Shown in pieces: positions 2,432 to 22,249 of a stretch of 22,249 bases of DNA. A program made the translations under genes and the position numbers. Within the stretch, counting starts at the first letter, position 1, and the number at the start of each line of letters is the position of its first letter. The notes beneath the pieces were generated by a model, which did no database searches, was not told the origin of the DNA, and saw only the letters and a list, made by a program, of their open reading frames with translations. The stretch is from a virus, in IMG/VR virus record IMGVR_UViG_3300020442_002932, positions 1 to 22,249 of that record, one strand, 5' to 3'.

Positions 2432-3346
2432 ATGCGATTTGGATTGTGCTGCATATCGTTAGATTTGCAAGAATTAGAAGAACCATACAAGTTCCAGACT
2501 ATGACCTATAAGCGTTTTAGTTCTCTCCCACGCGATGAAGCTATAAATATTTTAGGTTCTCGTATACTCAATAACATGAAAGTAACACATGCTCATATCA
2601 AGCACTGTGCAGACAATGACTACTGCTATCGTATTAGTAGTGATTTATTTCCTCTTATTACCTATATTGCTGCCGATGTTATACTTACTGATTTACCTCA
2701 ATACAATGAGATCGAACAAGAAATAGAAGCAATAAGACAAACTATACAAAATACAGGTGTTCGTATTTCTTGTCACCCTTCAGAGTTTAATGTTCTTGCA
2801 TCCACTAATCAAGATGCTGTTGACAGAACAATCAGAGAATTAAATTTCTATTCAGAATTTCTTGACAACTTAGGATGTCCTGCCGATTATAATTCGCCTA
2901 TGAATTTACACATTAATAATCGACAAGGAAGTAACGATGAGATTGTGGATAGGTTTATCGAAAATTATAACAGACTTGATGATAATTGTCGTCGTCGTAT
3001 TGTTATTGAAAATGACGATAAACTTAATTGCTGGTCTGTAAAACAGCTTATAGAAGATTTTTATCCTAAAACAAGAATACCAATAACATTCGATTATTTA
3101 CATCATTCTTGTCATCCTGACGGTTGGACAGAAGAATTTGCTGTTTTAGCTTGCGTAAACACATGGCAAGGTTATAGACCGCTTTTTCATTACAGTGAAT
3201 CTGCACCGGGAAATAACCCAAGAAAACATGCAGATTATGCAGAAAAAGACTTTTATCAATATGGCGAAATAGACTATGATGTAGATATGGAATTAAAAAT
3301 GAAAGACAAAGCAATCGCTAAATTTATGGAAGGTGTATCTATATGA
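2432..3346 (+). CDS. uvsE: UV-damage endonuclease (UVDE/UvsE family)
   Basis: UVDE nicks DNA directly 5' of UV photoproducts (and other lesions), starting an alternative excision repair route. The protein has the TIM-barrel metal-site pattern of the family: HPSEF (His115), MNLHI (His160), IEND (Glu193), TFDYLHH (Asp221, His224), LFHYSES (His253) and KHADY (His266). The N-terminus 'MRFGLCCISLDL' is also typical. At 304 aa it matches the normal length of bacterial members. It sits directly behind a strong promoter and is followed by a small membrane gene overlapping by ATGA. A phage copy would repair genomes damaged by sunlight, suggesting a host in an illuminated aquatic habitat (inference). 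Confidence 0.93.
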   Translation: MRFGLCCISLDLQELEEPYKFQTMTYKRFSSLPRDEAINILGSRILNNMKVTHAHIKHCADNDYCYRISSDLFPLITYIAADVILTDLPQYNEIEQEIEAIRQTIQNTGVRISCHPSEFNVLASTNQDAVDRTIRELNFYSEFLDNLGCPADYNSPMNLHINNRQGSNDEIVDRFIENYNRLDDNCRRRIVIENDDKLNCWSVKQLIEDFYPKTRIPITFDYLHHSCHPDGWTEEFAVLACVNTWQGYRPLFHYSESAPGNNPRKHADYAEKDFYQYGEIDYDVDMELKMKDKAIAKFMEGVSI

Positions 3347-5335: not shown

Positions 5336-5685
5336 GGGGGCGTAAAGGTTTCGACAGGTTTGGAAGATTTATATTTAGCAAGTAGTAGTTGATCTGGAGG
5401 CTACTTTAAAACCAGATTAAAACGCTTAACTGGCGAAACTCAGTTAGCACTCGCCGCTTAGTAGCGGTGACGATCTTAGGAAGCGATGAAGGGAGCGTCC
5501 AAAAGATCGACGTAAAATCCTTCGGCAATCATAATCGCCAACTGATTGTGGTCTGAGTTTTAGTTGGAAGAAACGTATGCTGGTTTGTCCTTTGTCTGCA
5601 TAATGTTTCTATTAACAATGGACTAAACTTGTAGAAGATATAATGAACTAAATACTGGACAGGGGTTCGACTCCCCTCGCCTCCA
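5336..5685 (+). ncRNA. ssrA: Transfer-messenger RNA (tmRNA), one-piece
   Basis: tmRNA frees stalled ribosomes and adds a degradation tag. The 5' GGGGGCG (5336-5342) pairs with CGCCTCC (5678-5684, one G-U) to form the acceptor stem, with A5685 as discriminator; CCA is not encoded. The 5' 'GGTTTCGACAGG' and the T-arm 'AGGGGTTCGACTCCCCT' are diagnostic. Pseudoknot PK1 is visible: AGTAG/CTACT and ATCTGG (5392-5397) with CCAGAT (5412-5417). Eleven bases after it an open frame begins: the predicted tag is TGETQLALAA (5429-5458), or GETQLALAA, followed by tandem stops TAG TAG (5459-5464). The exact resume codon is inferred by spacing as in E. coli. The RNA abuts the upstream stop codon and needs 5' processing if co-transcribed. 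A tmRNA in a phage-like context is uncommon. Confidence 0.95.
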
Positions 5686-5688
5686 CTT

Positions 5689-6240: not shown

Positions 6241-6807
6241 ATGATCCGATATTATGCTAGTGACACGCATAGATATATTTGGTATGTTGTTCCTAAATGT
6301 GGACGCACAAGTTTATTGTATTGGTTAAAAAAACATAATCTTATTGAGCAAGAAAAAGTGGGTCTTTCAACAGGAGAGCCTCTTTTTGTCAAACATAATG
6401 AATACTTCACATTCTCCTTTTGTAGAAATCCTTATGATAGACTGGTTTCTACATACTTCGATAAAGTTCCGAAACAAGAACTACCTTTTTATAAAAGGTG
6501 GAAAGATAAGGGTTTTGCAGAATTTGCTAATGATATTTGTGATATGCGTACAAAAAAGATGGACGGTCATGTAGTACCTCAAGTGTTTTTAATACCTAAA
6601 AATTTAGATTTTTTAGGCAGATTTGAGACTCTCAATCAAGATATTCAAACTGTAACTAATAAATTATTTAATATAAAATTTGACGATAGACATTACAACA
6701 AAAGCAAACATAAACACTATTCAAAGTATTACGATAAAGCATTGAGAGATAAAGTATACGAAAAATATAAACAAGACTTTGAAAGATTCGGATATGATCC
6801 TGAGTAA
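6241..6807 (+). CDS. Sulfotransferase (Sulfotransfer_2-like), 188 aa
   Basis: This protein would move sulfate from PAPS to a hydroxyl of a sugar or other acceptor. It has the two PAPS-binding signatures of the fold: the 5'-phosphosulfate loop VPKCGRTS (residues 17-24) and the 3'-phosphate motif CRNPYDRLVSTY (61-72). The C-terminus carries 'HKHYSKYYD', also seen in the next gene. At 188 aa it is shorter than many relatives, so it is a minimal catalytic domain. No signal peptide or membrane anchor is seen, so it acts in the cytoplasm. It is the first of five sulfotransferases here and overlaps the next. Acceptor cannot be inferred. Confidence 0.85.
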   Translation: MIRYYASDTHRYIWYVVPKCGRTSLLYWLKKHNLIEQEKVGLSTGEPLFVKHNEYFTFSFCRNPYDRLVSTYFDKVPKQELPFYKRWKDKGFAEFANDICDMRTKKMDGHVVPQVFLIPKNLDFLGRFETLNQDIQTVTNKLFNIKFDDRHYNKSKHKHYSKYYDKALRDKVYEKYKQDFERFGYDPE

Positions 6808-7396
6808 AAAATATTCTGTATTATTTATAGCAATACAAAAAACAGGAACAACCAGTGTGGAAAAAGTATTACAAGAGTATTTATATCCGCATGTTGCGTC
6901 TAGTACAGTTAAAATCAAAAAAAGACCAAACTTTAAGTATAAACATAATTCAGCAGAAATACTTGCTGGTTGTCCAGAAATCAAATCTATTTGGTATGAA
7001 TTATTTAAATTCTCTTTTGTTAGAAATCCTTGGGACTTATGTGTTTCTCATTATTTTTACAGACAGAGGGAGGGACATGAGGAAGCAGTCGGCACTCCTT
7101 TTAGAGAATGGTTGATGAATGATAAAAAACGAGAACCTATTATGTGGCAAGCATCTACCCAATATGACTGCTTAACTGTAAATGGTAAATTAGCAGTGGA
7201 TTTCATAGGTAGATTTGAAAATTTGCAAGCAGATTTTGATAAAATTTGTAAACATATACAAATACCATCTATACAACTAGATAAACACAATACCACCGAG
7301 CATGAACATTATTCAAAATATTATGACCAAGAAACGAAAGAATATGTTTTTAATTTATTTAAAAAAGACATAGACTACTTCAACTATGAATTTTAA
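6794..7396 (+). CDS. Sulfotransferase, 200 aa, tandem relative of the preceding gene
   Basis: The ATG at 6794 is chosen over an upstream TTG at 6779; translation would be coupled to the previous gene, whose stop lies 14 bases inside. PAPS-binding signatures are IQKTGTTS (residues 14-21) and VRNPWDLCVSHY (76-87). 'GRFENLQADFDKI' and the final 'HEHYSKYYDQETKEYVFNLF' parallel the same positions in the upstream gene (GRFETLNQDIQTV, HKHYSKYYDKALRDKVYEKY), so the two probably arose by duplication and diverged. It overlaps the following glycosyltransferase by 11 bases. Likely sulfates a glycan; acceptor unknown. Confidence 0.87.
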   Translation: MILSKKYSVLFIAIQKTGTTSVEKVLQEYLYPHVASSTVKIKKRPNFKYKHNSAEILAGCPEIKSIWYELFKFSFVRNPWDLCVSHYFYRQREGHEEAVGTPFREWLMNDKKREPIMWQASTQYDCLTVNGKLAVDFIGRFENLQADFDKICKHIQIPSIQLDKHNTTEHEHYSKYYDQETKEYVFNLFKKDIDYFNYEF

Positions 7397-8147
7397 TTTT
7401 GTATTCATAATACCTTCTTACAATAATCAAGATTGGTATAAATATAATATCAAATCAATACATAAACAATCTTATAATAATTGGAGAGCTATTTATATTG
7501 ATGATAATTCTACAGACAATACGCTTGAATTAGTTAAGAAATATAATAAAGAATTAAATATAAGTTCAAAATTTACATACATTAAAAATTCAAGAAAATT
7601 AGGCCCAGCAGGATCAAGGTATCAAGGCTATAGTAAGACGCATGATAAAGAAATTTGTTGTCTTTTAGATGGAGATGATTGGCTATATGGAGATAATGTA
7701 TTAGTAACACTTAATGCATATTATAATCGTGGCTATAATTGTACTTATGGTTCGTATATAAACGCAGCACGAAAAAACAATATTATACCCAATAAAGATT
7801 TTGCAGAAAATGTACACAGAGACAAATCTTATAGACAATATTGTAAGGGGCCAAACATTTGTTCTCATTTACGCACTATGAAAAGCTCATTAATAAAAAA
7901 TATTGATATTGATAAGTATTTAAAAATAGATAATGAATGGATACAAGTTTGCACAGATTTAGCTGAAATGTGTTATGTATTAGAGCAGAAGAATTGCTTA
8001 CCCAAATTTATTAATCAGCCATTATATGTATATAATTATTATAATTCTATAAGATATAATACCTCTCATTATTTCATTAAACAGCCAGATAATAAACATA
8101 TGGCAGAATATAGAGAGCGTATACTGGAGAAAATACAAAATGATTAA
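7386..8147 (+). CDS. Family 2 glycosyltransferase (GT-A fold), 253 aa
   Basis: GT2 enzymes transfer a sugar from a nucleotide-sugar donor with inversion. The GT-A signs are clear: IIPSYNN (residues 8-14), DDNSTD (39-44) in the nucleotide-binding region, GPAGSRYQGY (73-82) and the metal-binding DGDDW (95-99). The domain occupies most of the 253 aa, and no membrane segment is visible, so it is a soluble single-domain enzyme. It overlaps both neighbours (a sulfotransferase before, a GT25 after), implying coordinated expression. Donor and acceptor cannot be told. Confidence 0.9.
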   Translation: MNFNFVFIIPSYNNQDWYKYNIKSIHKQSYNNWRAIYIDDNSTDNTLELVKKYNKELNISSKFTYIKNSRKLGPAGSRYQGYSKTHDKEICCLLDGDDWLYGDNVLVTLNAYYNRGYNCTYGSYINAARKNNIIPNKDFAENVHRDKSYRQYCKGPNICSHLRTMKSSLIKNIDIDKYLKIDNEWIQVCTDLAEMCYVLEQKNCLPKFINQPLYVYNYYNSIRYNTSHYFIKQPDNKHMAEYRERILEKIQND

Positions 8148-8874
8148 CAATACAATCGTACTATCTTTACCTCAAAGTATTAAAAGAAGAGAGTTTATGG
8201 AGTTAAAGCTGGATTCAGTTTCAGATACAATTCTAGAATATAAATTTTTCAATGCTTTGGATGGAAACAAAATACCAGAATATGATAACTATGCAAACTA
8301 TTGCTATAAAAATAAGAAGAAGATTTTAGTTGGAGAGCATGGTGCTTATGGATGTTTAATGAGTTACAAAAAATTATTTTCTGAACAATGGCAACCATCA
8401 TTTGTTATTGAAGATGATGTTTACTTTCATAAAAATTATAAAAACATTATAAGTCAAGCATACAAAGAAAATATTTTTGATGAATATGATATAATATACT
8501 TTGGCTATAATAATTATAGACTATCCGATCAACAACTAAGTGCTATTAAAAATAATGAATTTATTATACCAGTATCAAAAGAACGTAAATATATAACTTG
8601 CGGAACATATGCAATCTGGTATTCTACTAAAGCAATATCTTATTTAAATATTATTTTACAAAATATGCAATATGGTGAAATCAAACCGATAGATCATATT
8701 GTATGGAAGTTAACTAATAGATTAAAATCTGGAATTATCAATCCTCCTTTATGCATTAGTGAGGTTCGTGATAGTAATATTAGGCCATCGAGAGATACTG
8801 CTTCGTTTTATAACCAAAGAGGCATGGATTTAAATAATTATATGCATTTAGGTAAATATGAAAAGTTTAGGTAA
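8140..8874 (+). CDS. Family 25 glycosyltransferase (LPS-type), 244 aa
   Basis: GT25 enzymes include lipooligosaccharide galactosyltransferases and collagen glucosyltransferases. The start 'IVLSLPQSIKRREFM' (residues 6-20), 'FNALDGNKIPEYD' (37-49), 'GEHGAYGCLMSYKKLF' (65-80) and the acidic VIEDDVYF (89-96) are the family hallmarks in order. 'YITCGTYAIWYSTKAI' and 'PIDHIVW' further on also match. It begins eight bases inside the previous GT2 gene. It ends five bases before the ligase promoter, so it is the last gene of that transcription block. A related GT25 domain is found in the fusion protein at 10991-12865. Confidence 0.88.
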   Translation: MINNTIVLSLPQSIKRREFMELKLDSVSDTILEYKFFNALDGNKIPEYDNYANYCYKNKKKILVGEHGAYGCLMSYKKLFSEQWQPSFVIEDDVYFHKNYKNIISQAYKENIFDEYDIIYFGYNNYRLSDQQLSAIKNNEFIIPVSKERKYITCGTYAIWYSTKAISYLNIILQNMQYGEIKPIDHIVWKLTNRLKSGIINPPLCISEVRDSNIRPSRDTASFYNQRGMDLNNYMHLGKYEKFR

Positions 8875-8878
8875 AGAC

Positions 8879-8907
8879 TTGACGCTTTGATGTCGATAAT
8901 GTATACT
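8879..8907 (+). promoter_or_regulatory. Sigma70-like promoter with CGATA element (before DNA ligase)
   Basis: TTGACG at 8879-8884, 17-base spacer and TATACT at 8902-8907. CGATAATG (8894-8901) sits directly before the -10, closer to it than at the other promoters. It gives the ligase its own start of transcription inside the glycan region. Confidence 0.7.
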
Positions 8908-8944
8908 ATAGAAGGGAATCAATCACAAGACACAGGAATATATA

Positions 8945-10264
8945 ATGAACAGCACAGAATATGTTATGGCTATGATCGACGAACTGCGTAATAATAGCGG
9001 TACGATTGCCAAGCAAGAAATTATTGCAAAGTATTGTAAAGCAGGTAAAGAGGAGGATAACGGAGATCAACTTCATGCTAGAAATGTGCTGAATTTAGCA
9101 CATAATGACTATCTTATGTATGGTTTAACAAGTAGCCAAGTTAAGAAGCGACCAGATTTATCTTTCGGAGATTGCGAACCGGGATATGGCTTGTGTCAAA
9201 TGTTCAGTGATTTGAATAACAGAAGGTTTACAGGACATGATGCTATTAGAATTGTAAATGCTTATATTAACAAACATCCAGAACAAGAAGAACTTGTCTA
9301 TTGTATTTTAGACAAAGACCTGAAAACTAAGGTTGGTGTAAAACTTATTAATAAAGTTATTCCTGATTTTATTCCAGAGTTCAGCGTTGCTCTTGCAGAA
9401 AAATATGAACCTAAATTAGTGGAGTGGAAAGATGAGTGGTTTGTTTCAAGGAAACTGGATGGTGTTAGATGTCTCGCTATTGTTGATAATTTTGGCAACA
9501 CTACCTTCTATTCCCGCACAGGAAAAGAGTTCCTTACTCTTGGTGTGGTTTCTGATGGGATTAGTGCTTTGGGGATTACTGACGTAGTATTTGATGGTGA
9601 ACTATGCTTAGTTGATGAAGATGGTAATGAAGATTTTCAAGGTATTATGAAGCAACTTCGTAAAAAAGATCATACTATCGAGAATCCTTCTTATAAAATC
9701 TTTGATATGATGACTCAAGATGAATTTAAAGCAAAGAAGAGCGATGAGAATCTCTATGAAAGATATAAGCAGTTATTGTTCACTATGGAGAATAACGAAT
9801 GTCCCTGCTTATCTGTATTAGAAATGGATATAGTAGAAGATGATGAACATTTCCAAGAATGGGTATCTAAAGCAGATGAGAATGGTTGGGAAGGCGTAAT
9901 GTTGCGTAAAAATGTAGTATATAAAGGCAAGCGTAGTAAAGACCTATTGAAAGTAAAGACCTTCCACGATGCTGAATATAAAGTGCTAGACACAGAAATG
10001 GGAATGTTTCCCTTAACAATAGATGGTAAAGAATGCGAAGAAGAAATGCTATCTTGTGTTTACATTAAACATAAAGATCATACCGTAAGAGTGGGGAGTG
10101 GATTTTCTATAGAACAAAGACAAGACTTTTATAAAAACCCTACTAGTATCTTGGGTAAGGTTATAACCGTACAATATTTTGAAGAAACTAAAAATCAAGA
10201 AGGTGGAATTAGTTTAAGATTTCCAACATTTAAAATACTACATGGAGATTCTAGAGTGCTATGA
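8945..10264 (+). CDS. ATP-dependent DNA ligase
   Basis: Seals nicks during phage replication and repair, through a lysyl-AMP intermediate. Nucleotidyltransferase motifs appear in order: motif I RKLDGVR with catalytic Lys170, SRTGKE (190-195), motif III FDGEL (216-220), motif IV WEGVMLRK (315-322), motif V LLKVKTF (334-340). An N-terminal helical region of about 160 residues precedes, as in phage ligases that contact DNA with an extra domain. The last 100 residues fit the OB fold (EGGISLRFPTF near the end). 439 aa is in the usual range for phage ligases. It has its own promoter, and by eye less extreme AT content than the sugar genes around it. Its stop overlaps the next gene by four bases (ATGA). 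Confidence 0.93.
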   Translation: MNSTEYVMAMIDELRNNSGTIAKQEIIAKYCKAGKEEDNGDQLHARNVLNLAHNDYLMYGLTSSQVKKRPDLSFGDCEPGYGLCQMFSDLNNRRFTGHDAIRIVNAYINKHPEQEELVYCILDKDLKTKVGVKLINKVIPDFIPEFSVALAEKYEPKLVEWKDEWFVSRKLDGVRCLAIVDNFGNTTFYSRTGKEFLTLGVVSDGISALGITDVVFDGELCLVDEDGNEDFQGIMKQLRKKDHTIENPSYKIFDMMTQDEFKAKKSDENLYERYKQLLFTMENNECPCLSVLEMDIVEDDEHFQEWVSKADENGWEGVMLRKNVVYKGKRSKDLLKVKTFHDAEYKVLDTEMGMFPLTIDGKECEEEMLSCVYIKHKDHTVRVGSGFSIEQRQDFYKNPTSILGKVITVQYFEETKNQEGGISLRFPTFKILHGDSRVL

Positions 10265-10938
10265 TTAAAGATTTCACTATTTATGGAGAAAGATGTAGCG
10301 GCACAAATTTTTTGTACTCCATATTTACCGGAGATGTTCATCATGCAGGAGTCATAGACCCTTCTGAAGCTAAAAGAAATAAGATAAGCAATATACCTTG
10401 GGTAAATACTTATGGCTGGAAACATTTTTTTGGCTTTCATAATACTGAAATACAAAGACATGGAGATAATACATTATTCTTAGGTATAGTTAGAAATCCT
10501 TATGATTGGATACATTCTTTTTATGGTAATCTCTATCATGTACCTGATGAAAATCGTAAGATGTATAAGTTTTTATTATCAGAATGGTATTCTGTTAAGA
10601 AGCATAATGTAGAGAATTTACACGATAGGGACTTATCAAATACAGATAAAAGATATAAGAATATTTTTGATCTAAGATCAAAGAAACTAAATTATCTATA
10701 TAATACTATGCCTACGTTAGCTAAAAATTATTATTTTTTAAAGTATGAAGATTTATGTCAAAATCCACATAAAATATTTGATGAAATATCTAAAAAATTC
10801 AATTTAAATTTTGAAAATGTTTCTAAAATTAAAGTTAAAAAACCTAATCCACATAAATTAGATAACAGAATGAAGCAAATTATAGATGATAATATTGATT
10901 GGGATATGGAAAATTCTGTAGGTTACGAAAAAAGGTAG
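10261..10938 (+). CDS. Sulfotransferase, 225 aa
   Basis: The start overlaps the ligase stop as ATGA, so ligase and sulfotransferase are translationally coupled despite different roles. The 5'-phosphosulfate loop is GERCSGTNFL (residues 9-18), a form with Arg-Cys in place of the common Lys-Thr. The 3'-phosphate motif is VRNPYDWIHSFY (77-88). 'YYFLKYEDLCQNPHKIFDEI' (about 162-181) is the usual C-terminal PAPS-site segment of the fold. No membrane segment is visible. It resembles the phage/bacterial sulfotransferases of uncertain acceptor, and is not closely like the tandem pair upstream. Confidence 0.85.
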   Translation: MIKDFTIYGERCSGTNFLYSIFTGDVHHAGVIDPSEAKRNKISNIPWVNTYGWKHFFGFHNTEIQRHGDNTLFLGIVRNPYDWIHSFYGNLYHVPDENRKMYKFLLSEWYSVKKHNVENLHDRDLSNTDKRYKNIFDLRSKKLNYLYNTMPTLAKNYYFLKYEDLCQNPHKIFDEISKKFNLNFENVSKIKVKKPNPHKLDNRMKQIIDDNIDWDMENSVGYEKR

Positions 10939-10990
10939 CTGGTGTAATTTATGGTATCAGGCTTAATAAGGAATCGGACGATACAAAATT

Positions 10991-12865
10991 ATGGCAATTT
11001 CTATAGAGGAATTTTATCGCACTGCAATAGTAGACTCAGCATTTGATGAAAAATATTATCTAGAACATAATCCAGAAGCGAGAGATTTTTATCTTTCATA
11101 CTGCCAAAGTAATGGCATAGATGATAAACATAGATTATTTTTTCATAGTTTTTTAAAACAAAAAGGGGAGGCGATTAGTAATTATAGCACAGAAGCTAAT
11201 ATTTTAATCCCGCCAGTAAAAACCACCCCTGAATATCAGCTTACATTATCAGAATTTTATAAACATCATAAAGTAGATAAAATTTTTGATGAAGAATTTT
11301 ATGAAAATCAATGTCCAGATGTTATAAATTTTTATGAACCACATGCTACTGAAATAGGTATTAGTAAAAAAGAAAAATATTATTACCATTATATAATGCA
11401 TGGCAAGGCTATGGGTTTTCTGAAATCAGATAACCCCGTAGATAAGTCGGTATCAGTAATAATAGCCGTTAAAAATAGAACAGAGAATTTATTTAAAATT
11501 TTAAATTCTTGGCATGATGTAGATTTAATTGATGAAATTATTGTCGTAGACTATAGTTCAGACGAACCTGTGATAATTACAGATTATAACAAGGTAAAAG
11601 TGATAAGAGTAGAAAATGAAAAATATTTTAATTTAGGCAAGGCTTACAATTTAGCATTTGACTTTTCTAAGAGTGATATTGTAATTAAAGTTGATGCAGA
11701 TTATCAGCTTTTAGATAGTAATTGGCTTGAACTATATTTAAGAAATGGTTTATGTCACAAATATTTCATAAGATCAGATTATACTTTTTCTAGATATACT
11801 TCTGGGTTCTTTGTTGTACATAAAGAAGATTATAAATATTTTAGAGAAGACTTAAATGGATATGGTTATGACGAGATAGATTTGTATACGAGAATTAAAA
11901 AATCTAATCCTGATATCACTGAAGTAATCTGGTTTGATATAGACAATTCTATATATCATATTCCTCATACTCACGAATCTAGAACAACAAACTATATCAC
12001 ACAAAATACTGGATCATCAGAAATTAATAATAGATTTATGTGCGATAGGTATTCCCCTATAAAACCTAGAAGAAATCCCTATCTTATAAAAGATGATAAT
12101 ACTATCACATATCATAAACTAAAAATTGACAGGATGTTCTGTATAAATTTAGATGATAGGGTGGATAGATGGGAATTATTATCTAAACATAATTTAGAAA
12201 GATTTTCTGCTATAGATACCAGAAAAAATACTTTAAGACACAAGGAATATGGCTTAGAGATCAATCCTTGCAATATATCTTCTGATGTTTACTTTAAAAA
12301 GTCTAATGGTGCTGTAGGAGTATATTTAAGCCATTATTTATTATGGCAAAAGATAGTTAATGAAAATATTAAAAATGCATTAATTTTAGAAGATGATGTA
12401 GCAGAACAAACCGTAGAAGATATATTAAATTCTAATTTAATCATACGTGATAATGATGATATTATTAATTTATCAAAAAGAATACGATGGGAAAATAGTA
12501 GATTATTATTTGATGGCGCAGAGTCTTATATTATAAGTTATAATGGAGCAAAAAAATTACTTCAAGCTACAGCAAATAATTATTTACTTAACAATATAAA
12601 GCCTCAAAATTATGTACCTATACGACATAAAGAGTTTATTGATTGGAATTTTAAAAACTCAATTACCTGCCCTGTGGATAAATTTATGGGATATTGTTGT
12701 GAAAAAGAAGCTGACTCAAGCATTAGATTAAAATATTATATATATCCTATCGTTAACATGAATGATGGAGTAAGTGAAAAATCTGATATAAATACAGGAA
12801 ATACTTTTGTTTGGGATATGAATGAATCTGAACTTATGAATATATACAATCAAGAAAATAAATAA
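10991..12865 (+). CDS. Two-headed glycosyltransferase: two N-terminal repeats, GT2 domain, GT25 domain, 624 aa
   Basis: Residues about 5-58 and 86-142 are a diverged repeat with 'FDE(K/E)(Y/F)Y' near its start, 'P(E/D)xxxFY' and a terminal '(F)HSFLKQKGEA' / 'YHYIMHGKAMGF'; such modules are known at the N-termini of bacterial glycosyltransferases. A GT2 domain follows: VSVIIAVKNR (154-163), VVDYSSDE (185-192), the DAD metal motif (235-237) and a C-terminal part 'RSDYTFSRYTSGFFVVHKED' with 'GYGYDEIDLYTRI', like the galactosyltransferase/chondroitin-polymerase type. Residues from about 378 form a GT25 domain: KIDRMFCINLDDRVDRW, GAVGVYLSHYLLW (440-452) and LILEDDV (464-470). The two active sites could add two sugars in sequence. 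No frameshift is seen. Confidence 0.85.
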   Translation: MAISIEEFYRTAIVDSAFDEKYYLEHNPEARDFYLSYCQSNGIDDKHRLFFHSFLKQKGEAISNYSTEANILIPPVKTTPEYQLTLSEFYKHHKVDKIFDEEFYENQCPDVINFYEPHATEIGISKKEKYYYHYIMHGKAMGFLKSDNPVDKSVSVIIAVKNRTENLFKILNSWHDVDLIDEIIVVDYSSDEPVIITDYNKVKVIRVENEKYFNLGKAYNLAFDFSKSDIVIKVDADYQLLDSNWLELYLRNGLCHKYFIRSDYTFSRYTSGFFVVHKEDYKYFREDLNGYGYDEIDLYTRIKKSNPDITEVIWFDIDNSIYHIPHTHESRTTNYITQNTGSSEINNRFMCDRYSPIKPRRNPYLIKDDNTITYHKLKIDRMFCINLDDRVDRWELLSKHNLERFSAIDTRKNTLRHKEYGLEINPCNISSDVYFKKSNGAVGVYLSHYLLWQKIVNENIKNALILEDDVAEQTVEDILNSNLIIRDNDDIINLSKRIRWENSRLLFDGAESYIISYNGAKKLLQATANNYLLNNIKPQNYVPIRHKEFIDWNFKNSITCPVDKFMGYCCEKEADSSIRLKYYIYPIVNMNDGVSEKSDINTGNTFVWDMNESELMNIYNQENK

Positions 12866-12866
12866 T

Positions 12867-13673
12867 ATGAGTAAAGCAAAATGTAATTTATTTCTAATGT
12901 CTCCACCAAAAACAGGTAGTAGTTCGTTATTTTATCTATTAAAGCAACATCCATTTATATCTGGCTGTTCTTTAAAAGAACCACAGTTTTTTTCCAATAA
13001 CTTTACTAAAGGACTTGATTATTATAACGACTTATTCCCTGTTGATGACTGCCTCTATCGTATGGAAGCATCTACTACATATTTTAGTGATGAGTGGGCA
13101 GTACCTAAAATGCAAAAAACTTGTGACAAAAATATAAAAATAATTTGTGTGCTTAGAAATCCAGTAGAAAGATTTATATCACAATATAAACATTTTCGTG
13201 CTATTAACATTATTCTCAACAATAAAGAACTGCACGAAGAATTTCAACAATCTATAAACTGGGTAGATACATGGAGAAGAAATATTCAAAATTGGAATGG
13301 CTGTCCAAGGATATACACAAACATATTTGAAGCACATGAAAGCAAGAAAAACTTATATAATTATTTGAATAATGGAAACTATGCAAAAAGTATAAAAAGA
13401 ATATGGCATCATTTCGATAAAGATAATGTATTATTTATTAAATATGATGATTTTAAAGCAGACTATAATAAAACTATAAGTTTAATATGTAAATTCTTGA
13501 ATATAGAGCAGTTAATTGTAGATAATGTATCTTATAATCGTACTGCAAATTGGGAAAAATTTGCTAGTGTGGAAGATGAAATAACAGATACTATGTTAAA
13601 TGAACTAAAAATATATTATATGGAATCTAATAATGAGTTGAAAAGTATGTTAGGAGATCATTTCCTATGGTAA
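12867..13673 (+). CDS. Sulfotransferase of the Sulfotransfer_1/heparan-sulfate type, 268 aa
   Basis: Begins immediately after the glycosyltransferase stop (one base between them). The 5'-phosphosulfate loop is PPKTGSSSL (residues 13-21), with KEPQFF (37-42) next, and the 3'-phosphate motif VLRNPVERFISQY (95-107). 'LKEPQFFS...GLDYYNDLF...EASTTYF' is the arrangement found in heparan-sulfate N-/3-O-sulfotransferase-like enzymes and their bacterial homologues, so a polysaccharide acceptor is the best guess. It is the most canonical of the five. It overlaps the next gene by seven bases. The substrate itself is not determined. Confidence 0.9.
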   Translation: MSKAKCNLFLMSPPKTGSSSLFYLLKQHPFISGCSLKEPQFFSNNFTKGLDYYNDLFPVDDCLYRMEASTTYFSDEWAVPKMQKTCDKNIKIICVLRNPVERFISQYKHFRAINIILNNKELHEEFQQSINWVDTWRRNIQNWNGCPRIYTNIFEAHESKKNLYNYLNNGNYAKSIKRIWHHFDKDNVLFIKYDDFKADYNKTISLICKFLNIEQLIVDNVSYNRTANWEKFASVEDEITDTMLNELKIYYMESNNELKSMLGDHFLW

Positions 13674-14491
13674 ATAGTATAGGAGCATATCTATGTAACA
13701 CTTATCAAAATGAAGCGTGGGCTTCATTAGCTAACAATAATATTGAAAAGTATTTTAATTTTCATGATATAAAACTATCTGTTGTAAATTTAGATAATCC
13801 TTATGTTAAAATTTTGTCTCAGTATCCCAATATTTGTCCGACAATAAGAAAGATGCTTAGATATTATTCTTTTCTAGAATCTGATAATGAATATGGAATT
13901 TTTATTGATCTAGACACAGTAATTATCAATCCCTTAAAAAATGTAGCAGACTGTATTGATAGTGGCACAAATCTTTTGAAAACTTGGAAATTTTCTAAAG
14001 AAAAAAGTGCAAACCAAGATTATTTGTTAAGGAAATCTGTTTTTGTAAATAAATTTTTTAATTTTGAAATAGAGTTTAAGTGTAGTACGGCTTTTAGTAT
14101 TTTAAACAAACAATTCTGTTCTGACTACATTAAATTCAATGAAGATACTCTTGGAATAAATATAACTTCTGAACAATCAATTAAACAATTATCAAAACTC
14201 GTATCTAATAAAAATTATGTTGTTAATGACGAATCAATATTAGAAATATTTCTTTCTCAGCCAATGCACTTCAAAAAACACAAAAAACCAAATAATTATT
14301 GGTGGTTTGGATTATGGAAAAAATATAATATTATAGACCCTATGCTGAAAAATAAAATTTGTTACAGTAATTTTGAGACAAACCTAGACTTATTGGAATT
14401 ATTAAATAATGATTATATATTTTGGCATTTATCGAATTTAAATTATAAAAAACATCTTTTAAAATTTACAGAAATGTTTGCATTACTATGA
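13667..14491 (+). CDS. Glycosyltransferase with DXD motif (GT8/GT32-like), 274 aa
   Basis: Overlaps the sulfotransferase genes on both sides (7 and 4 bases). 'RKMLRYYSFLESDNEYGIFIDLDTVIINPL' spans residues 61-90 and contains the DLD metal motif at 81-83 within the 'fiDlDtvi' context typical of retaining GT-A enzymes that read donor sugar nucleotides. Further on, 'NDESILEIFLSQP' and 'FWHLSNLNYKKH' fit the rest of such a fold. The exact CAZy family cannot be fixed by eye. Its position between two sulfotransferases supports a role in building the sulfated product. Confidence 0.75.
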   Translation: MVNSIGAYLCNTYQNEAWASLANNNIEKYFNFHDIKLSVVNLDNPYVKILSQYPNICPTIRKMLRYYSFLESDNEYGIFIDLDTVIINPLKNVADCIDSGTNLLKTWKFSKEKSANQDYLLRKSVFVNKFFNFEIEFKCSTAFSILNKQFCSDYIKFNEDTLGINITSEQSIKQLSKLVSNKNYVVNDESILEIFLSQPMHFKKHKKPNNYWWFGLWKKYNIIDPMLKNKICYSNFETNLDLLELLNNDYIFWHLSNLNYKKHLLKFTEMFALL

Positions 14492-15336
14492 AAACAATTT
14501 CCATATTAGCAAGTGCTAGAACAGGATCGACTTTTTTATCTAGACATTTTAAATCGTTACAAGGCTATTGCTATAGTGCTGGAGAAATTTTTAATGCCTA
14601 TTTACCAAAGCAAATAAAAATTATCCATGATATTTTTTATCAAAACAATATACCTTTGTCAACAGAATATATGAATTTTTTACTGAAAAGCAAACCAGTA
14701 TTACTCAATGTTAAACAAAACCAAACAAGGAAACTTTATAACTATAAAAACACAAACCCATATTGCATAGAAATGTTTTTTGATATTCAGAAACAATTAA
14801 ATAATTTACATTACAGATACTTTATAAATAAAAATGTACTTAATGAATACTTCGATCATTCGTGGATTTGTAAAATTGTTGAAGCGTCTGATGTTATTAT
14901 TATTAATTATAGAAAATCAATACTAGACTCATATATTAGTTTGAAAAAAGCTAAAAATATTGGACAATGGATGCTGACATATGATAAAGATTATAATCCT
15001 AAATACGATGAATTAATTACTTGGAATAAAGAAGAGTATATGGATTTTGTGAAGGAATATAAAGAAAATTATACTATGTTTGCTAATTGCACATTAGATT
15101 ACAAAAAGCCATACCATATTATTAATTATGAAGAACTTTGTAGTTTTGATAGTCTGTCTTTTATTGAAAAAACAATGGGGAGTGGTTACGCATTAGAAAA
15201 ACCAAATATTAAAAAACAATCTCGTACTTTAAATAGAGTTGATAATTTCTGTAATAAAAATACATTTGAAAAAGATATGTTAGATATAGATGAATTAGAC
15301 AAAAATTTTAGCATAGAAACGCTAAAACTAAATTAA
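14488..15336 (+). CDS. Sulfotransferase of Stf0/NodH-like type, 282 aa
   Basis: Coupled by ATGA overlap to the previous glycosyltransferase. The N-terminal 'ISILASARTGSTFLSRH' (phosphosulfate loop at residues 8-15) is the hallmark of the Stf0/NodH-like sulfotransferase group, distinct from the 'PKTG' type. The 3'-phosphate motif is YRKSILDSYISL (141-152), and 'YHIINYEELC' follows at about 206-215. Stf0 enzymes sulfate trehalose and NodH sulfates Nod-factor glycans, so a glycan acceptor is likely here. It is the last gene before the next promoter and ends this block. Confidence 0.85.
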   Translation: MKTISILASARTGSTFLSRHFKSLQGYCYSAGEIFNAYLPKQIKIIHDIFYQNNIPLSTEYMNFLLKSKPVLLNVKQNQTRKLYNYKNTNPYCIEMFFDIQKQLNNLHYRYFINKNVLNEYFDHSWICKIVEASDVIIINYRKSILDSYISLKKAKNIGQWMLTYDKDYNPKYDELITWNKEEYMDFVKEYKENYTMFANCTLDYKKPYHIINYEELCSFDSLSFIEKTMGSGYALEKPNIKKQSRTLNRVDNFCNKNTFEKDMLDIDELDKNFSIETLKLN

Positions 15337-15375: not shown

Positions 15376-15412
15376 TGTTAGTATCACAGGATTTAACTTT
15401 TTGGAGACTACT

Positions 15413-16111
15413 ATGGAAACTACTACAGAAAAACCAGTAAAGCAAACCACTTACTGTCGGAGTCGGGCTGATGACTTTTTTAAAACATTTCCTAGAGAAA
15501 AAATTCAAGCATATAAGGAGTACTGGGAGAGTGTACGACCACAGAATCATGGCGATATTTTTAGGCGTTATCTGTTTGCTTATTGCTCTGTTCATACAAG
15601 TTGGCAAGGGAATTGCCGTGGTTACGAGGCCATTAAGCAATACGACGAATGGATCGACGATAAAGAAAAACTCCTAGACAAACTAAAAAATTCTGGAGTT
15701 GGATTGTATAACAATAGAACAAAGTATATCTGGGACTTTGCGACACAGTTCTGGAATAATCCAAAAGATTTTTACCTTACAACAAAAAAGTATCATGTCA
15801 AAAAGCGTGATGAGATTGTTAATCGCATTACTGGTCTTGGTATGGCAAAAGTTTCATTTGCATTAGAAATGATTCATCCAAATTTTGCTAGGGTTTTGTG
15901 TGGAGATGTTCATCAACTTAGATTATATGGTATGCAAGACCTTACATACAAAAGCAAGACAGGATTTGAAAAATACAAAAGAATGGAACAACATTGGAGT
16001 GTAAATTGCGGCAAAATTAAAGTACCATCTTATATTGCTCGATGTGTATACTGGGATAAACTGCAAGATAAAACAGATAGTAGGTATTGGAGTTATGTTT
16101 TAGAGGCTTAA
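15413..16111 (+). CDS. Helix-hairpin-helix DNA-glycosylase-like protein, 232 aa
   Basis: Start at ATG 15413; an in-frame TTG at 15401 overlaps the ribosome-binding site. The C-terminal half has 'ITGLGMAKVSFAL' (residues 139-151), matching the LPGVGxxTA hairpin of HhH-GPD base-excision glycosylases, and 'VLCGDVHQLRLYG' (161-173), where Asp165 would be the conserved catalytic Asp of the 'VDxH' position. The lysine used by bifunctional glycosylases is not at its usual place (Lys146 is one residue off), so a monofunctional enzyme or a binding-only protein is possible. Expected role is removal of damaged or non-canonical bases. It has its own promoter, like the UVDE and ligase genes. Confidence 0.7.
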   Translation: METTTEKPVKQTTYCRSRADDFFKTFPREKIQAYKEYWESVRPQNHGDIFRRYLFAYCSVHTSWQGNCRGYEAIKQYDEWIDDKEKLLDKLKNSGVGLYNNRTKYIWDFATQFWNNPKDFYLTTKKYHVKKRDEIVNRITGLGMAKVSFALEMIHPNFARVLCGDVHQLRLYGMQDLTYKSKTGFEKYKRMEQHWSVNCGKIKVPSYIARCVYWDKLQDKTDSRYWSYVLEA

Positions 16112-17347: not shown

Positions 17348-17453
17348 GGAAATTGAATTAGTAGTTGGGAAAGATTACGCATTGATTTTATACGGCTATA
17401 TGAACCATATGATAGGTGGTAGTAATGAGCAAACTGTACAAAAACAAGACTAA
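17340..17453 (+). CDS. Very small hypothetical protein, 37 aa
   Basis: Starts inside the previous small gene and overlaps the PspC-domain gene by 29 bases. Sequence begins MIKEIELVVGKDYALILYG and ends polar. Support comes only from the continuous chain of overlaps in this part; the peptide has no recognisable motif and may not be expressed. Confidence 0.35.
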   Translation: MIKEIELVVGKDYALILYGYMNHMIGGSNEQTVQKQD

Positions 17454-17613
17454 AGGTATGATCTTTGGAGTCTGTGCTGGTATATCTGACTTTCTGGGTA
17501 TTGACGTAAGATTAATTAGAATATTATTTATTGTTGCGGCAATCACTACAGCAAGTGCTATGTTTTGGGTTTATTTACTGTTGGGGGTATTTTTACCTAA
17601 TAAAGATGACTAG
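17425..17613 (+). CDS. PspC-domain membrane protein, 62 aa
   Basis: The start at ATG 17425 follows GGTGG (17415-17419); a GTG at 17416 is a weaker option. The product is a nearly complete stand-alone PspC domain: 'KTKGMIFGVCAGISDFLGID' (about residues 8-27), 'VRLIRILFIVAAITT' and a second hydrophobic stretch 'FWVYLLLGVFLPNKDD'. PspC proteins sit in the inner membrane and respond to or protect from membrane stress. A phage copy might protect the infected cell membrane or block the host stress response; this is inference. It is followed two bases later by a membrane-anchored thioredoxin. Confidence 0.88.
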   Translation: MSKLYKNKTKGMIFGVCAGISDFLGIDVRLIRILFIVAAITTASAMFWVYLLLGVFLPNKDD

Positions 17614-17615
17614 AT

Positions 17616-18119
17616 ATGGATATCAAAAATAAAACCCTACCTGTTGTATTATTATTTATCCTCATTACTATTCTAGTTATAAGATCAAAGTCTAATGGTT
17701 CTGATAACGCCACACCTAATATAGACAACAAACCAAATCCCAAAGTAATTATACCTAAGCCAGAAATTCCAAAATTAGATACTAATATTGTATATGATGA
17801 TTTAGAAAAAGCTATTGCTTTAGGCAAAGTACACCACATGAATGTTGTGTTGGTATTCGGTGCTGATTGGTGTCCGTACTGCAAAGAATTAAAAAAAGAT
17901 AGTAAAAACATAAAAGAATTGGAAAAATATATTGTATGTTTTCTTGATACAGATAATCGTGAGGTTAATCAGTCTGCTATAAATAAATTTAAGCCTAGAA
18001 GTTTGCCAACATCCTTGTTGCTAGATACTACTAATAATAGAGAAGTATCTAGAAAAGTTGGATATAGAAACAAGGATTATAAAAAATGGTTAAACTCTTT
18101 AGGGGAATCTTCACAGTAA
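17616..18119 (+). CDS. Membrane-anchored thioredoxin-like protein, 167 aa
   Basis: An N-terminal membrane segment (LPVVLLFILITILVI, residues 8-22) is followed by a Pro-rich linker (about 33-55) and a thioredoxin domain. The active site is FGADWCPYCKEL, with Cys86 and Cys89, and the loop with cis-Pro is seen in 'RSLPTSLLL'. The domain would face the periplasm and reduce or exchange disulfides there. The CPYC centre and 'VVLVFGADWCPYC' beginning resemble thioredoxin-like/DsbD-type soluble domains. The next two genes encode likely exported or Cys-bearing proteins, which could be its clients. It overlaps the next gene by 34 bases. Confidence 0.9.
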   Translation: MDIKNKTLPVVLLFILITILVIRSKSNGSDNATPNIDNKPNPKVIIPKPEIPKLDTNIVYDDLEKAIALGKVHHMNVVLVFGADWCPYCKELKKDSKNIKELEKYIVCFLDTDNREVNQSAINKFKPRSLPTSLLLDTTNNREVSRKVGYRNKDYKKWLNSLGESSQ

Positions 18120-18994
18120 TACTTGTATTAAGTTTTACACATCTTTATGGACAAGAAGCACCAGATTTAGGTAAAATTTTAGAAAATGTTTTACAAAAGC
18201 ATTACGGAAATACCTCTCTAGACACTTTAGAAAGCATGAACGCTAGATCAGTGCCTATCGAGTTAGAAGCATTTGAATTAGAGGATAAAAGGAATTTAGA
18301 TAAAAATTGCATTTTTAATAATGTTATGTCTTATACTACTAAGCCTTTTAGTGGTAAATGGGGTAGACCAACAGATGTTCACGAAACTGTACATGGTATT
18401 AATAATGCATTAAGTAATATTAAAAGTGGATATAGAGCATTCTATGTAGGTGAAGGTAAAGCTATTTGGATTCAAGAACCTAATGTAACAATGGATGATA
18501 TTGTGCCTTTAATACCAGAAGAACTAAGAGGTTATAGATTTCCCTTATATTTTTTAGAACAAAAAAAACACTGGAATGATGTAGCATTATATCCCCTAGA
18601 AGAGTGGTGCGCATACATAGCTGGCGCTGAATGCGCTGTAGACGATTATAGTAGATATAATATTGATCCCACAAAATATAAGTCACATCCATATGATAGT
18701 GCTACTGCTATTAGAACAGATGAAGTTTCAGGATCATTAGAGTTTGCAATATACTGTACTGCATTAGCTATGGCTGTAAGCAGAAAAGATAAAGAATATT
18801 GGAAGAACCATACTCAATTTAAAAGAGCTATGAAATTCTTTTTAGTAAAAGCAGAGAAGATATTTTTTGAAGGTAAAGACATATTTAAATCTGAAAAACA
18901 AGATAAATTATTAAATGCACTACAAAATTCTTCAGAAGGTGTAAATATAAGAAATTTTTTACGCACATCTTTTGATGGAGTTTTTCTAGAATGA
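18086..18994 (+). CDS. Secreted HExxH metalloprotease-like protein, 302 aa
   Basis: The ATG lies inside the end of the thioredoxin gene. A classic signal peptide is visible (MVKLFRGIFTVILVLSFTHL, then YGQ at about 21-23). The zinc-binding motif HETVH is at residues 99-103 ('DVHETVHGINNAL'), and a downstream helix 'LEEWCAYIAGAE' (171-182) offers the Glu expected as third ligand in gluzincin-like peptidases. 'SGSLEFAIYCTALAMAVS' is a further conserved-looking helix. I do not recognise a named family, and proteolytic activity is inferred from the motif only. Exported position and neighbours suggest action on the host envelope or outside the cell. Confidence 0.65.
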   Translation: MVKLFRGIFTVILVLSFTHLYGQEAPDLGKILENVLQKHYGNTSLDTLESMNARSVPIELEAFELEDKRNLDKNCIFNNVMSYTTKPFSGKWGRPTDVHETVHGINNALSNIKSGYRAFYVGEGKAIWIQEPNVTMDDIVPLIPEELRGYRFPLYFLEQKKHWNDVALYPLEEWCAYIAGAECAVDDYSRYNIDPTKYKSHPYDSATAIRTDEVSGSLEFAIYCTALAMAVSRKDKEYWKNHTQFKRAMKFFLVKAEKIFFEGKDIFKSEKQDKLLNALQNSSEGVNIRNFLRTSFDGVFLE

Positions 18995-19404
18995 ATAATA
19001 AAAATGATAGTGTTTGGCGGATACCTAATCTGTCAGAATTAATAGACCTGCATAATAAAGCTAGGGCTGATAATTCTTGGATGTGGTCTATGAATCCACT
19101 AGTTATGAATAACGCATTAATGAATTTTGCTCAAGATTGGGCAGAAACTATGGCTACACAAAATAGATTAAAGCATAGTGATATGCAAGACATAATGCAA
19201 CTAGGCTTTTCTAGGGTCGCAGAAAATATAGCTTATGGTCAAATGGATGTTAAATCAGTAATGAGTACTTGGTTATCAAGTCCTCGTCATCGAAGAAATA
19301 TATTAAGTAAATCAGTTGATAGTATAGGTTGTGGTTTTTCCTATAGCAGTAAAGACATTATCTATTGGTGTGTATGTTTTGGAAAATCTAAAGATAATGC
19401 TTGA
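18991..19404 (+). CDS. CAP-domain (SCP/PR-1/YkwD-like) protein, 137 aa
   Basis: Coupled by ATGA overlap to the preceding gene. The CAP core is complete in outline: 'ELIDLHNKARADNSWMWSMN' (16-35), 'AQDWAETMATQNRLKHSDM' with His62, 'GFSRVAENIAYG' with Glu78, and 'MSTWLSSPRHRRNIL' with His100 of the CAP cavity, then 'IGCGFSYS...YWCVCFGK'. Such His/Glu tetrads bind metal or lipids. Bacterial CAP proteins are usually exported, but no signal peptide is seen here. Its role is unknown; sharing an operon with an exported HExxH protein suggests an envelope or host-interaction function. Its stop TGA is inside the -35 of the next promoter. Confidence 0.88.
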   Translation: MNNKNDSVWRIPNLSELIDLHNKARADNSWMWSMNPLVMNNALMNFAQDWAETMATQNRLKHSDMQDIMQLGFSRVAENIAYGQMDVKSVMSTWLSSPRHRRNILSKSVDSIGCGFSYSSKDIIYWCVCFGKSKDNA

Positions 19405-19459: not shown

Positions 19460-19744
19460 ATGGGAAAAGTAGTAATGGTTGAAAAGCAACAAAGAGTACG
19501 TTGCAGCGATGAAAAATTTTTAGAAGCAATTTATTCAAGCAAAACTTATGCTGAAATTGCAGAAAAAACAGGTCAAAAGGTCGCGTCTACTATAGCAAGA
19601 TATGGTAGGGTTAAAAAACTTTTGGCAGACAAGGGTATCGAAATTCCTGAAATGGAGAGAAAGAAAACCATCAGGAGTGTTGATAATATAGAAAATATGG
19701 TAAAAATTGTTAAGAGATTAAAAGAGCATCACAATAATATGTAA
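19460..19744 (+). CDS. Small HTH-like DNA-binding protein, 94 aa
   Basis: AGGAGG at 19446-19451, eight bases before the ATG, is the strongest ribosome-binding site in the region. The sequence 'CSDEKFLEAIYSSKTYAEIAEKTGQKVASTIARYGRVKKLL' (about residues 14-54) suggests a helix-turn-helix: a 'TYAEIAEKTGQ' turn followed by a recognition-like helix 'VASTIARYGRVK'. The N- and C-termini are basic or charged helices. It probably regulates transcription or binds DNA, but no named family is recognised. The tRNA gene begins two bases after its stop, so both likely share a transcript. Confidence 0.65.
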   Translation: MGKVVMVEKQQRVRCSDEKFLEAIYSSKTYAEIAEKTGQKVASTIARYGRVKKLLADKGIEIPEMERKKTIRSVDNIENMVKIVKRLKEHHNNM

Positions 19745-21996: not shown

Positions 21997-22249
21997 ATGA
22001 ATAAAAGAACCGGCTTTACTCTTATCGAATTACTAGTAGTTATTGCAATCATTGGTGTTTTAGTTGGATTATTGCTACCTGCTGTACAATCTGCTAGAGA
22101 AGCAGCAAGACGAGCATCTTGTTCTAATAATTTAAAGCAACAAGGTTTGGCTATGCACATGAGTTTAGATCAAAAAAGATACTTCCCTGCTGCTGCATGG
22201 ACTATTGAAGCTAAAGATTTATCTGAAACTCCTAGTTCTCTCGGCAATC
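21997..22249 (+). CDS. Prepilin-type DUF1559 protein (3' truncated by the window)
   Basis: Preceded by TAAGGA (21985-21990). The N-terminus is a type IV prepilin/pseudopilin leader: [20 protein letters not shown], with cleavage expected between Gly6 and Phe7 and the hydrophobic helix after it. The next part ([19 protein letters not shown], about 24-42, then [10 protein letters not shown]) is the signature of DUF1559, a family largely restricted to Planctomycetes and other PVC bacteria, where genomes carry many copies. 84 codons are visible and the frame runs off the end; full members are about 200-400 aa. In a phage context it is either an acquired host surface/pilus-like protein or evidence for a host border. 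I infer the former because the gene follows continuous phage-like genes on the same strand. Confidence 0.9.

What the first reader, a model, noticed from the sequence alone, without database searches (positions are those of the whole stretch)
17425..19404. Envelope-directed gene run: PspC, anchored thioredoxin, secreted HExxH protein, CAP protein
Four consecutive overlapping or nearly touching genes encode membrane or probable exported proteins with distinct folds. This combination is unusual for a phage. A joint role in keeping the envelope intact (PspC), folding disulfide proteins (thioredoxin) and altering an external target (HExxH, CAP) is plausible, for example superinfection exclusion or an attack on competitors.
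Basis: inference. Interest (0 to 1): 0.7.

Follow-up and report, generated by a model that had tools for sequence, protein, structure and literature searches.

The report
Phage module of exported protease genes
A group of uncultured large phages, which probably infect planctomycete bacteria, carry a small gene cluster that sends a thioredoxin and a previously undescribed zinc-protease-like protein out of the cell's cytoplasm, probably to attack or remodel the host's unusual protein-rich envelope.

Summary
The four genes are real and sit where described: PspC (17425-17613), membrane-anchored thioredoxin (17616-18119), secreted HExxH protein (18086-18994), CAP (18991-19404). Three of the four carry an export or membrane signal; CAP has none, in any of ten homologs.

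The run is conserved. It occupies a variable slot between a DNA-glycosylase gene and a small putative DNA-binding gene in a large family of uncultured phages. Thioredoxin and HExxH genes overlap in 16 of 17 main-clade sister sequences. In sister phages the slot also holds secreted trypsin-like proteases, an anchored M28 peptidase or a subtilase. The four genes associate but are separable; many phages carry PspC alone.

HExxH belongs to an undescribed family: no Pfam, NCBIfam, PHROG, PDB or fold match. Its HExxH plus a downstream Glu are invariant in 35 phage and bacterial sequences, so it is probably an active zinc peptidase.

Host evidence points to Planctomycetota: the window itself carries a DUF1559 pseudopilin gene, and sister contigs carry DUF1559 and DUF1501. 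Planctomycete walls contain cysteine-rich, disulfide-bonded proteins. Best reading: an extracytoplasmic thiol-reductase/protease module acting on the host envelope. Substrate and timing (lysis, superinfection exclusion, maturation) are untested.

The parts
17425..17613 (+). PspC-domain small inner-membrane protein, 62 aa
   Evidence: PF04024 E 2.8e-17; 14 phage homologs 50-62% identical
17616..18119 (+). membrane-anchored thioredoxin-like protein, 167 aa: TM segment, Pro-rich linker, CPYC active site
   Evidence: PF13098/PF00085; CxxC invariant in 14 sequences, several homologs with cleavable signal peptides
18086..18994 (+). secreted HExxH..E predicted zinc peptidase of an undescribed family, 302 aa
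   Evidence: signal-peptide-like N-terminus; invariant H99, E100, H103, E173 in 35 sequences; AF2 model pLDDT 84.7
18380..18394 (+). HETVH motif (residues 99-103)
   Evidence: sequence; lies on model helix 94-110
18599..18616 (+). EEWCAY motif (residues 172-177) holding the candidate third zinc ligand E173
   Evidence: E173, Y177 and G180 invariant in 35 sequences; model helix 169-191
18991..19404 (+). CAP-domain protein without export signal, 137 aa
   Evidence: PF00188 E 3.9e-20; no hydrophobic N-terminus in 10 sequences
15401..16111 (+). OGG-type DNA glycosylase: conserved left border of the slot
   Evidence: PF22175 E 1.2e-8; 330 candidate stretches in IMG/VR encode a relative
19460..19744 (+). 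94-aa putative HTH/DNA-binding protein: conserved right border of the slot
   Evidence: weak PHROG regulator hits; conserved position in sister contigs
21997..22249 (+). start of a DUF1559 / N-methyl pseudopilin-like gene, cut by the record's end (host marker)
   Evidence: PF07596 3.5e-13 and PF07963 3.3e-9
5336..5686 (+). tmRNA with tag GETQLALAA (host hint)
   Evidence: ARAGORN; Rfam RF00023, 123.9 bits

Best explanation
The run is the local form of a modular slot in a family of large uncultured phages that probably infect Planctomycetota. Much of what the slot encodes works outside the cytoplasm. Shown by sequence: PspC is a small membrane protein; the thioredoxin is anchored with its CxxC domain probably facing outward; the HExxH protein has a signal peptide and an invariant HExxH + Glu site; thioredoxin and HExxH genes overlap and travel together. 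Inferred: the anchored thioredoxin breaks disulfide bonds in host wall or surface proteins so that the zinc peptidase (or, in sister phages, trypsin-like or M28 peptidases) can cut them, most likely to weaken the disulfide-rich planctomycete envelope for lysis or spread. Also inferred: PspC keeps the inner membrane intact until then, and CAP, having no signal, acts only after membrane failure or from the virion.
For: Trx-HExxH overlap in the window and 16 distinct sister sequences. Unrelated peptidases with catalytic motifs in the same slot: trypsin, S8, M28. Myxococcota relative L159 begins with a trypsin-like segment in the same protein as HExxH (seen by eye). HExxH and E173 invariant in 35 sequences. 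Separate Trx homologs with cleavable signals. Host: DUF1559 gene in the window, DUF1501 in 12/23 and DUF1559 in 10/25 phage contigs against 2/14 and 0/14 control genomes; HExxH homolog in a Phycisphaerales MAG contig. [quoted passage not shown]
Against: No substrate, localisation or timing data. CAP and the S8 subtilase lack export signals, so not everything in the slot is exported. HExxH occurs without the thioredoxin in L030, in the L186/L206 clade and in unrelated phages. YTV wall proteins are reported only from Planctomycetales (PMC8567305), and the host order is unknown. Some planctomycetes also have peptidoglycan (PMC5814848). Presence of ordinary endolysins in these phages was not tested. 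No enzyme activity is demonstrated.
Confidence: 0.4

Rival explanations
1. Superinfection exclusion or receptor removal: exported peptidases and thioredoxin trim host surface proteins so that related phages can no longer adsorb, while PspC protects the membrane.
For: Several interchangeable peptidase families in one slot fit an arms race; glycosyltransferase and sulfotransferase-like genes nearby could also alter the surface.
Against: No receptor known; no precedent found in the papers searched; CAP has no export signal.
Confidence: 0.2
2. A mosaic cargo slot: PspC, Trx, HExxH and CAP are independent morons that share a site but not a function.
For: In 40 slots PspC alone 15, none 10, HExxH alone 2; HExxH and CAP also occur in unrelated phages without the others.
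Against: Trx-HExxH overlap is near constant in the main clade; all 5 CAP-bearing slots also have Trx (p 0.002) and HExxH-CAP associate (p 0.009), although these tests ignore shared ancestry.
Confidence: 0.25
3. The module folds or matures the phage's own exported proteins, such as the DUF1559 pseudopilin-like and DUF1501 proteins encoded elsewhere in these genomes.
For: DUF1559 gene lies just downstream in the window and in sister contigs; an exported thioredoxin suits disulfide folding.
Against: HExxH occurs in contigs where no DUF1559 was found, such as G004 and G006, though these may be incomplete; N-methyl pilins are normally cut by a membrane aspartyl peptidase, not a zincin (general knowledge).
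Confidence: 0.12

Closest known systems
Gluzincin-type zinc metallopeptidases (HExxH + downstream Glu)
   Same: HExxH on a helix, invariant Glu on a later helix, invariant tyrosines, signal peptide
   Different: no sequence match in Pfam, NCBIfam, PHROGs or PDB and no clear Foldseek match; metal binding and activity untested
PspC domain (PF04024)
   Same: membrane domain, E 2.8e-17
   Different: 62 aa, domain only; below the NCBIfam cut-off for full PspC (57.4 against 104 bits); no PspA recognised in the window
Periplasmic thioredoxin-like proteins (DsbD C-terminal domain)
   Same: N-terminal anchor or signal, CxxC, cis-Pro region
   Different: stand-alone, overlapping a peptidase gene; far below the DsbD cut-off
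CAP / YkwD proteins, incl. Bacillus phages Slash, Staley, Stills, Stahl
   Same: CAP domain; a terminase of this phage family is also distantly related to theirs (about 25% identity)
   Different: no signal peptide or LysM; different gene context

Membership tests
Zinc metallopeptidase (gluzincin-like) | HExxH motif conserved across homologs | tested here: met
   invariant in 35 phage and bacterial sequences
Zinc metallopeptidase (gluzincin-like) | downstream Glu as third zinc ligand | tested here: inconclusive
   E173 invariant and helical; site geometry not available
Zinc metallopeptidase (gluzincin-like) | fold shared with known zincins | tested here: inconclusive
   no Foldseek match at E<=0.001 in PDB or BFVD; best VIA Z 4.7
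Zinc metallopeptidase (gluzincin-like) | zinc binding and proteolysis | not testable with these tools
   needs purified protein
PspC domain family | PF04024 above gathering score | tested here: met
   62.7 bits against 25
Full-length envelope-stress PspC (TIGR02978) | score above curated cut-off | tested here: not met
   57.4 against 104 bits; only the domain is present
CAP superfamily | PF00188 above gathering score | tested here: met
   73.3 bits against 21.1
Exported CAP protein | signal peptide or anchor | tested here: not met
   none in the window copy or nine homologs
Thioredoxin-like | CxxC and thioredoxin profile above cut-off | tested here: met
   PF13098, PF13899, PF00085 above cut-off; C86 and C89 invariant
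Shiga-toxin B subunit (weak profile hit) | significant match and B-subunit fold | tested here: not met
   PDB-profile E 0.07 or worse, Pfam best 0.0091 among 21 members, PHROG best 0.0012; the region is helical in the model; treated as chance
Known anti-phage defence system (PADLOC) | convincing profile match | tested here: not met
   only marginal hits, 13-14 bits

The most novel reading that the evidence does not exclude
Phages of protein-walled bacteria carry a dedicated exported thiol-reductase plus protease module, with a new zinc-peptidase family at its core, that dismantles the disulfide-bonded protein layer of the planctomycete envelope in the way endolysins dismantle peptidoglycan.
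Probability: 0.18. Interest if true: 0.85.

Novelty: new variant of a known kind. Interest (0 to 1): 0.55.

Why it matters
No paper on planctomycete phages was found in the library searched, and how such phages get through an envelope with a cysteine-rich protein layer is open. The module gives concrete candidate enzymes, adds an undescribed family of exported HExxH..E proteins shared with Myxococcota and Planctomycetota, and marks a variable slot where exported peptidases can be mined.

Tried and rejected
Searches for the HExxH protein in cultured phages, and with a single-sequence query in IMG/VR or the 4-row alignment in GTDB, found nothing; the 4-row alignment worked in IMG/VR and the 21-row alignment in GTDB. 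Shiga-toxin B, Cas10 and other sub-threshold profile hits rejected as chance. Foldseek and VIA gave only weak helical-bundle rows. The DNA glycosylase was sought in 392 Planctomycetota and 189 Myxococcota genomes to place the host: no match, uninformative. Enrichment of hydrophobic N-termini in the slot is weak: 20% against 12%, p about 0.03, on ORFs that include spurious ones. The tmRNA tag (GETQLALAA, like ANTQLALAA in one planctomycete) is only a hint because ALAA ends are widespread. Searches for papers on planctomycete phages or viruses and on DUF1559 with phage returned nothing.

Full report
OBSERVATION. The four ORFs are present at the stated coordinates. Domain calls hold for PspC, thioredoxin and CAP. 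The HExxH protein matches no Pfam, PHROG or NCBIfam family. Gaps are 2 bp, a 34-bp overlap and a 4-bp overlap, consistent with one translationally coupled unit. PspC, thioredoxin and HExxH have hydrophobic N-terminal segments; CAP has none, nor do nine homologs. The window is a whole 22,249-bp IMG/VR record, with no near relative among cultured phages.

CONSERVATION. Searches with CAP, PspC and HExxH found the same neighbourhood in many IMG/VR contigs: ligase, OGG-type glycosylase, then the slot, then a 94-aa putative DNA-binding gene, a 106-aa gene and in some an epimerase. To avoid bait bias the glycosylase was used as an independent bait: 330 candidate stretches encoded a relative and the best 80 loci were taken. 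These are the 80 closest to the window by glycosylase, not a random draw. Sixty-six had a complete slot and collapsed to 40 at 98% glycosylase identity. Contents: PspC only 15, none 10, PspC+Trx 7, all four 3, CAP+PspC+Trx 2, HExxH only 2, Trx only 1. Fisher tests: Trx-CAP p 0.002, HExxH-CAP p 0.009, PspC-Trx p 0.02; PspC-CAP, PspC-HExxH and Trx-HExxH were not significant in this sample. The tests ignore shared ancestry and were not corrected for six comparisons.

THE TRX-HExxH PAIR. Among HExxH genes found by their own searches, thioredoxin overlaps the HExxH start by 4-55 bp in the window and in 16 distinct sister sequences. It is absent upstream in L030, in the L186/L206 clade and in unrelated phages. 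The thioredoxins differ in build: anchored with a Pro-rich linker next to HExxH, or short with a cleavable signal when on their own.

OTHER PEPTIDASES IN THE SLOT. Sister phages carry signal-bearing trypsin-like proteases (L030, L032, L043, L029, L036; also L008, L053, L060 in another lineage), S8 subtilases (L029, L036, L037) and M28 peptidases on the opposite strand (L040, L041). Catalytic motifs are mostly intact; my simple patterns missed one motif in the L029 subtilase and one in the L041 M28 protein. The S8 proteins show no evident signal peptide. Trypsin-like genes also occur outside the slot, upstream of the ligase, in L010, L215 and L229.

THE HExxH FAMILY. Relatives occur in 2 of 392 Planctomycetota and 9 of 189 Myxococcota genomes. 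Several myxococcal copies look like secreted or lipid-anchored proteins, and L159 begins with a trypsin-like segment in the same ORF (read by eye, not profile-tested). In 35 sequences H99, E100, H103, P144, Y155, Y169, E173, Y177, G180 and Y223 are invariant. The AlphaFold2 model (pLDDT 84.7, pTM 0.77) puts HExxH on helix 94-110 and E173 on helix 169-191. No solved or viral structure matched at E<=0.001, best VIA Z 4.7.

HOST. The window ends inside a DUF1559 / N-methyl gene that recurs downstream of the slot in sister contigs. DUF1559 is in 10 of 25 contigs examined and 0 of 14 control genomes; DUF1501 in 12 of 23 contigs, 2 of 14 controls and 29 of 40 Planctomycetota genomes. That DUF1559 is characteristic of Planctomycetota is general knowledge; its frequency there was not measured here. 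tmRNA is found in 12 of 20 contigs over the cut-off. An HExxH relative lies on a contig of a Phycisphaerales MAG. Planctomycetota is therefore the likely host, unproven.

MECHANISM. Extracytoplasmic action of HExxH and thioredoxin is well supported by their N-termini. The target is inferred. [quoted passage not shown] A reductase plus peptidase suits such a substrate. Superinfection exclusion, maturation of the phage's own exported proteins, and unlinked cargo remain open.

VERDICT. A real, conserved and partly modular gene run; a new HExxH..E family; a plausible but untested envelope-directed role.

Noticed in passing
window 21997-22249: Start of a DUF1559 / N-methyl pseudopilin-like gene cut by the record's end; conserved downstream of the epimerase in sister phages.
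   Followed up: partly
G002, G004-G006, G008-G010, G016, G018, G020, G603, G607: DUF1501 proteins encoded in 12 of 23 phage contigs, three copies in one (G010); unusual for phages.
   Followed up: partly
window 5336-5686: Phage-borne tmRNA, tag GETQLALAA; sister phages have ADTSVLALAA and others.
   Followed up: partly
L159 1-2184: Myxococcota protein with a trypsin-like N-terminus and an HExxH-family C-terminus in one ORF.
   Followed up: partly
L061 7980-9154; L065 5704-7919: HExxH and CAP genes near each other in phage lineages lacking the glycosylase neighbourhood.
   Followed up: no
window 6241-15336: Run of sulfotransferase-like and glycosyltransferase genes (GT25, GT2) on either side of the DNA ligase, suggesting surface modification.
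   Followed up: no
window 2432-3346: UvdE-type UV endonuclease (PF03851, E 3e-41).
   Followed up: no
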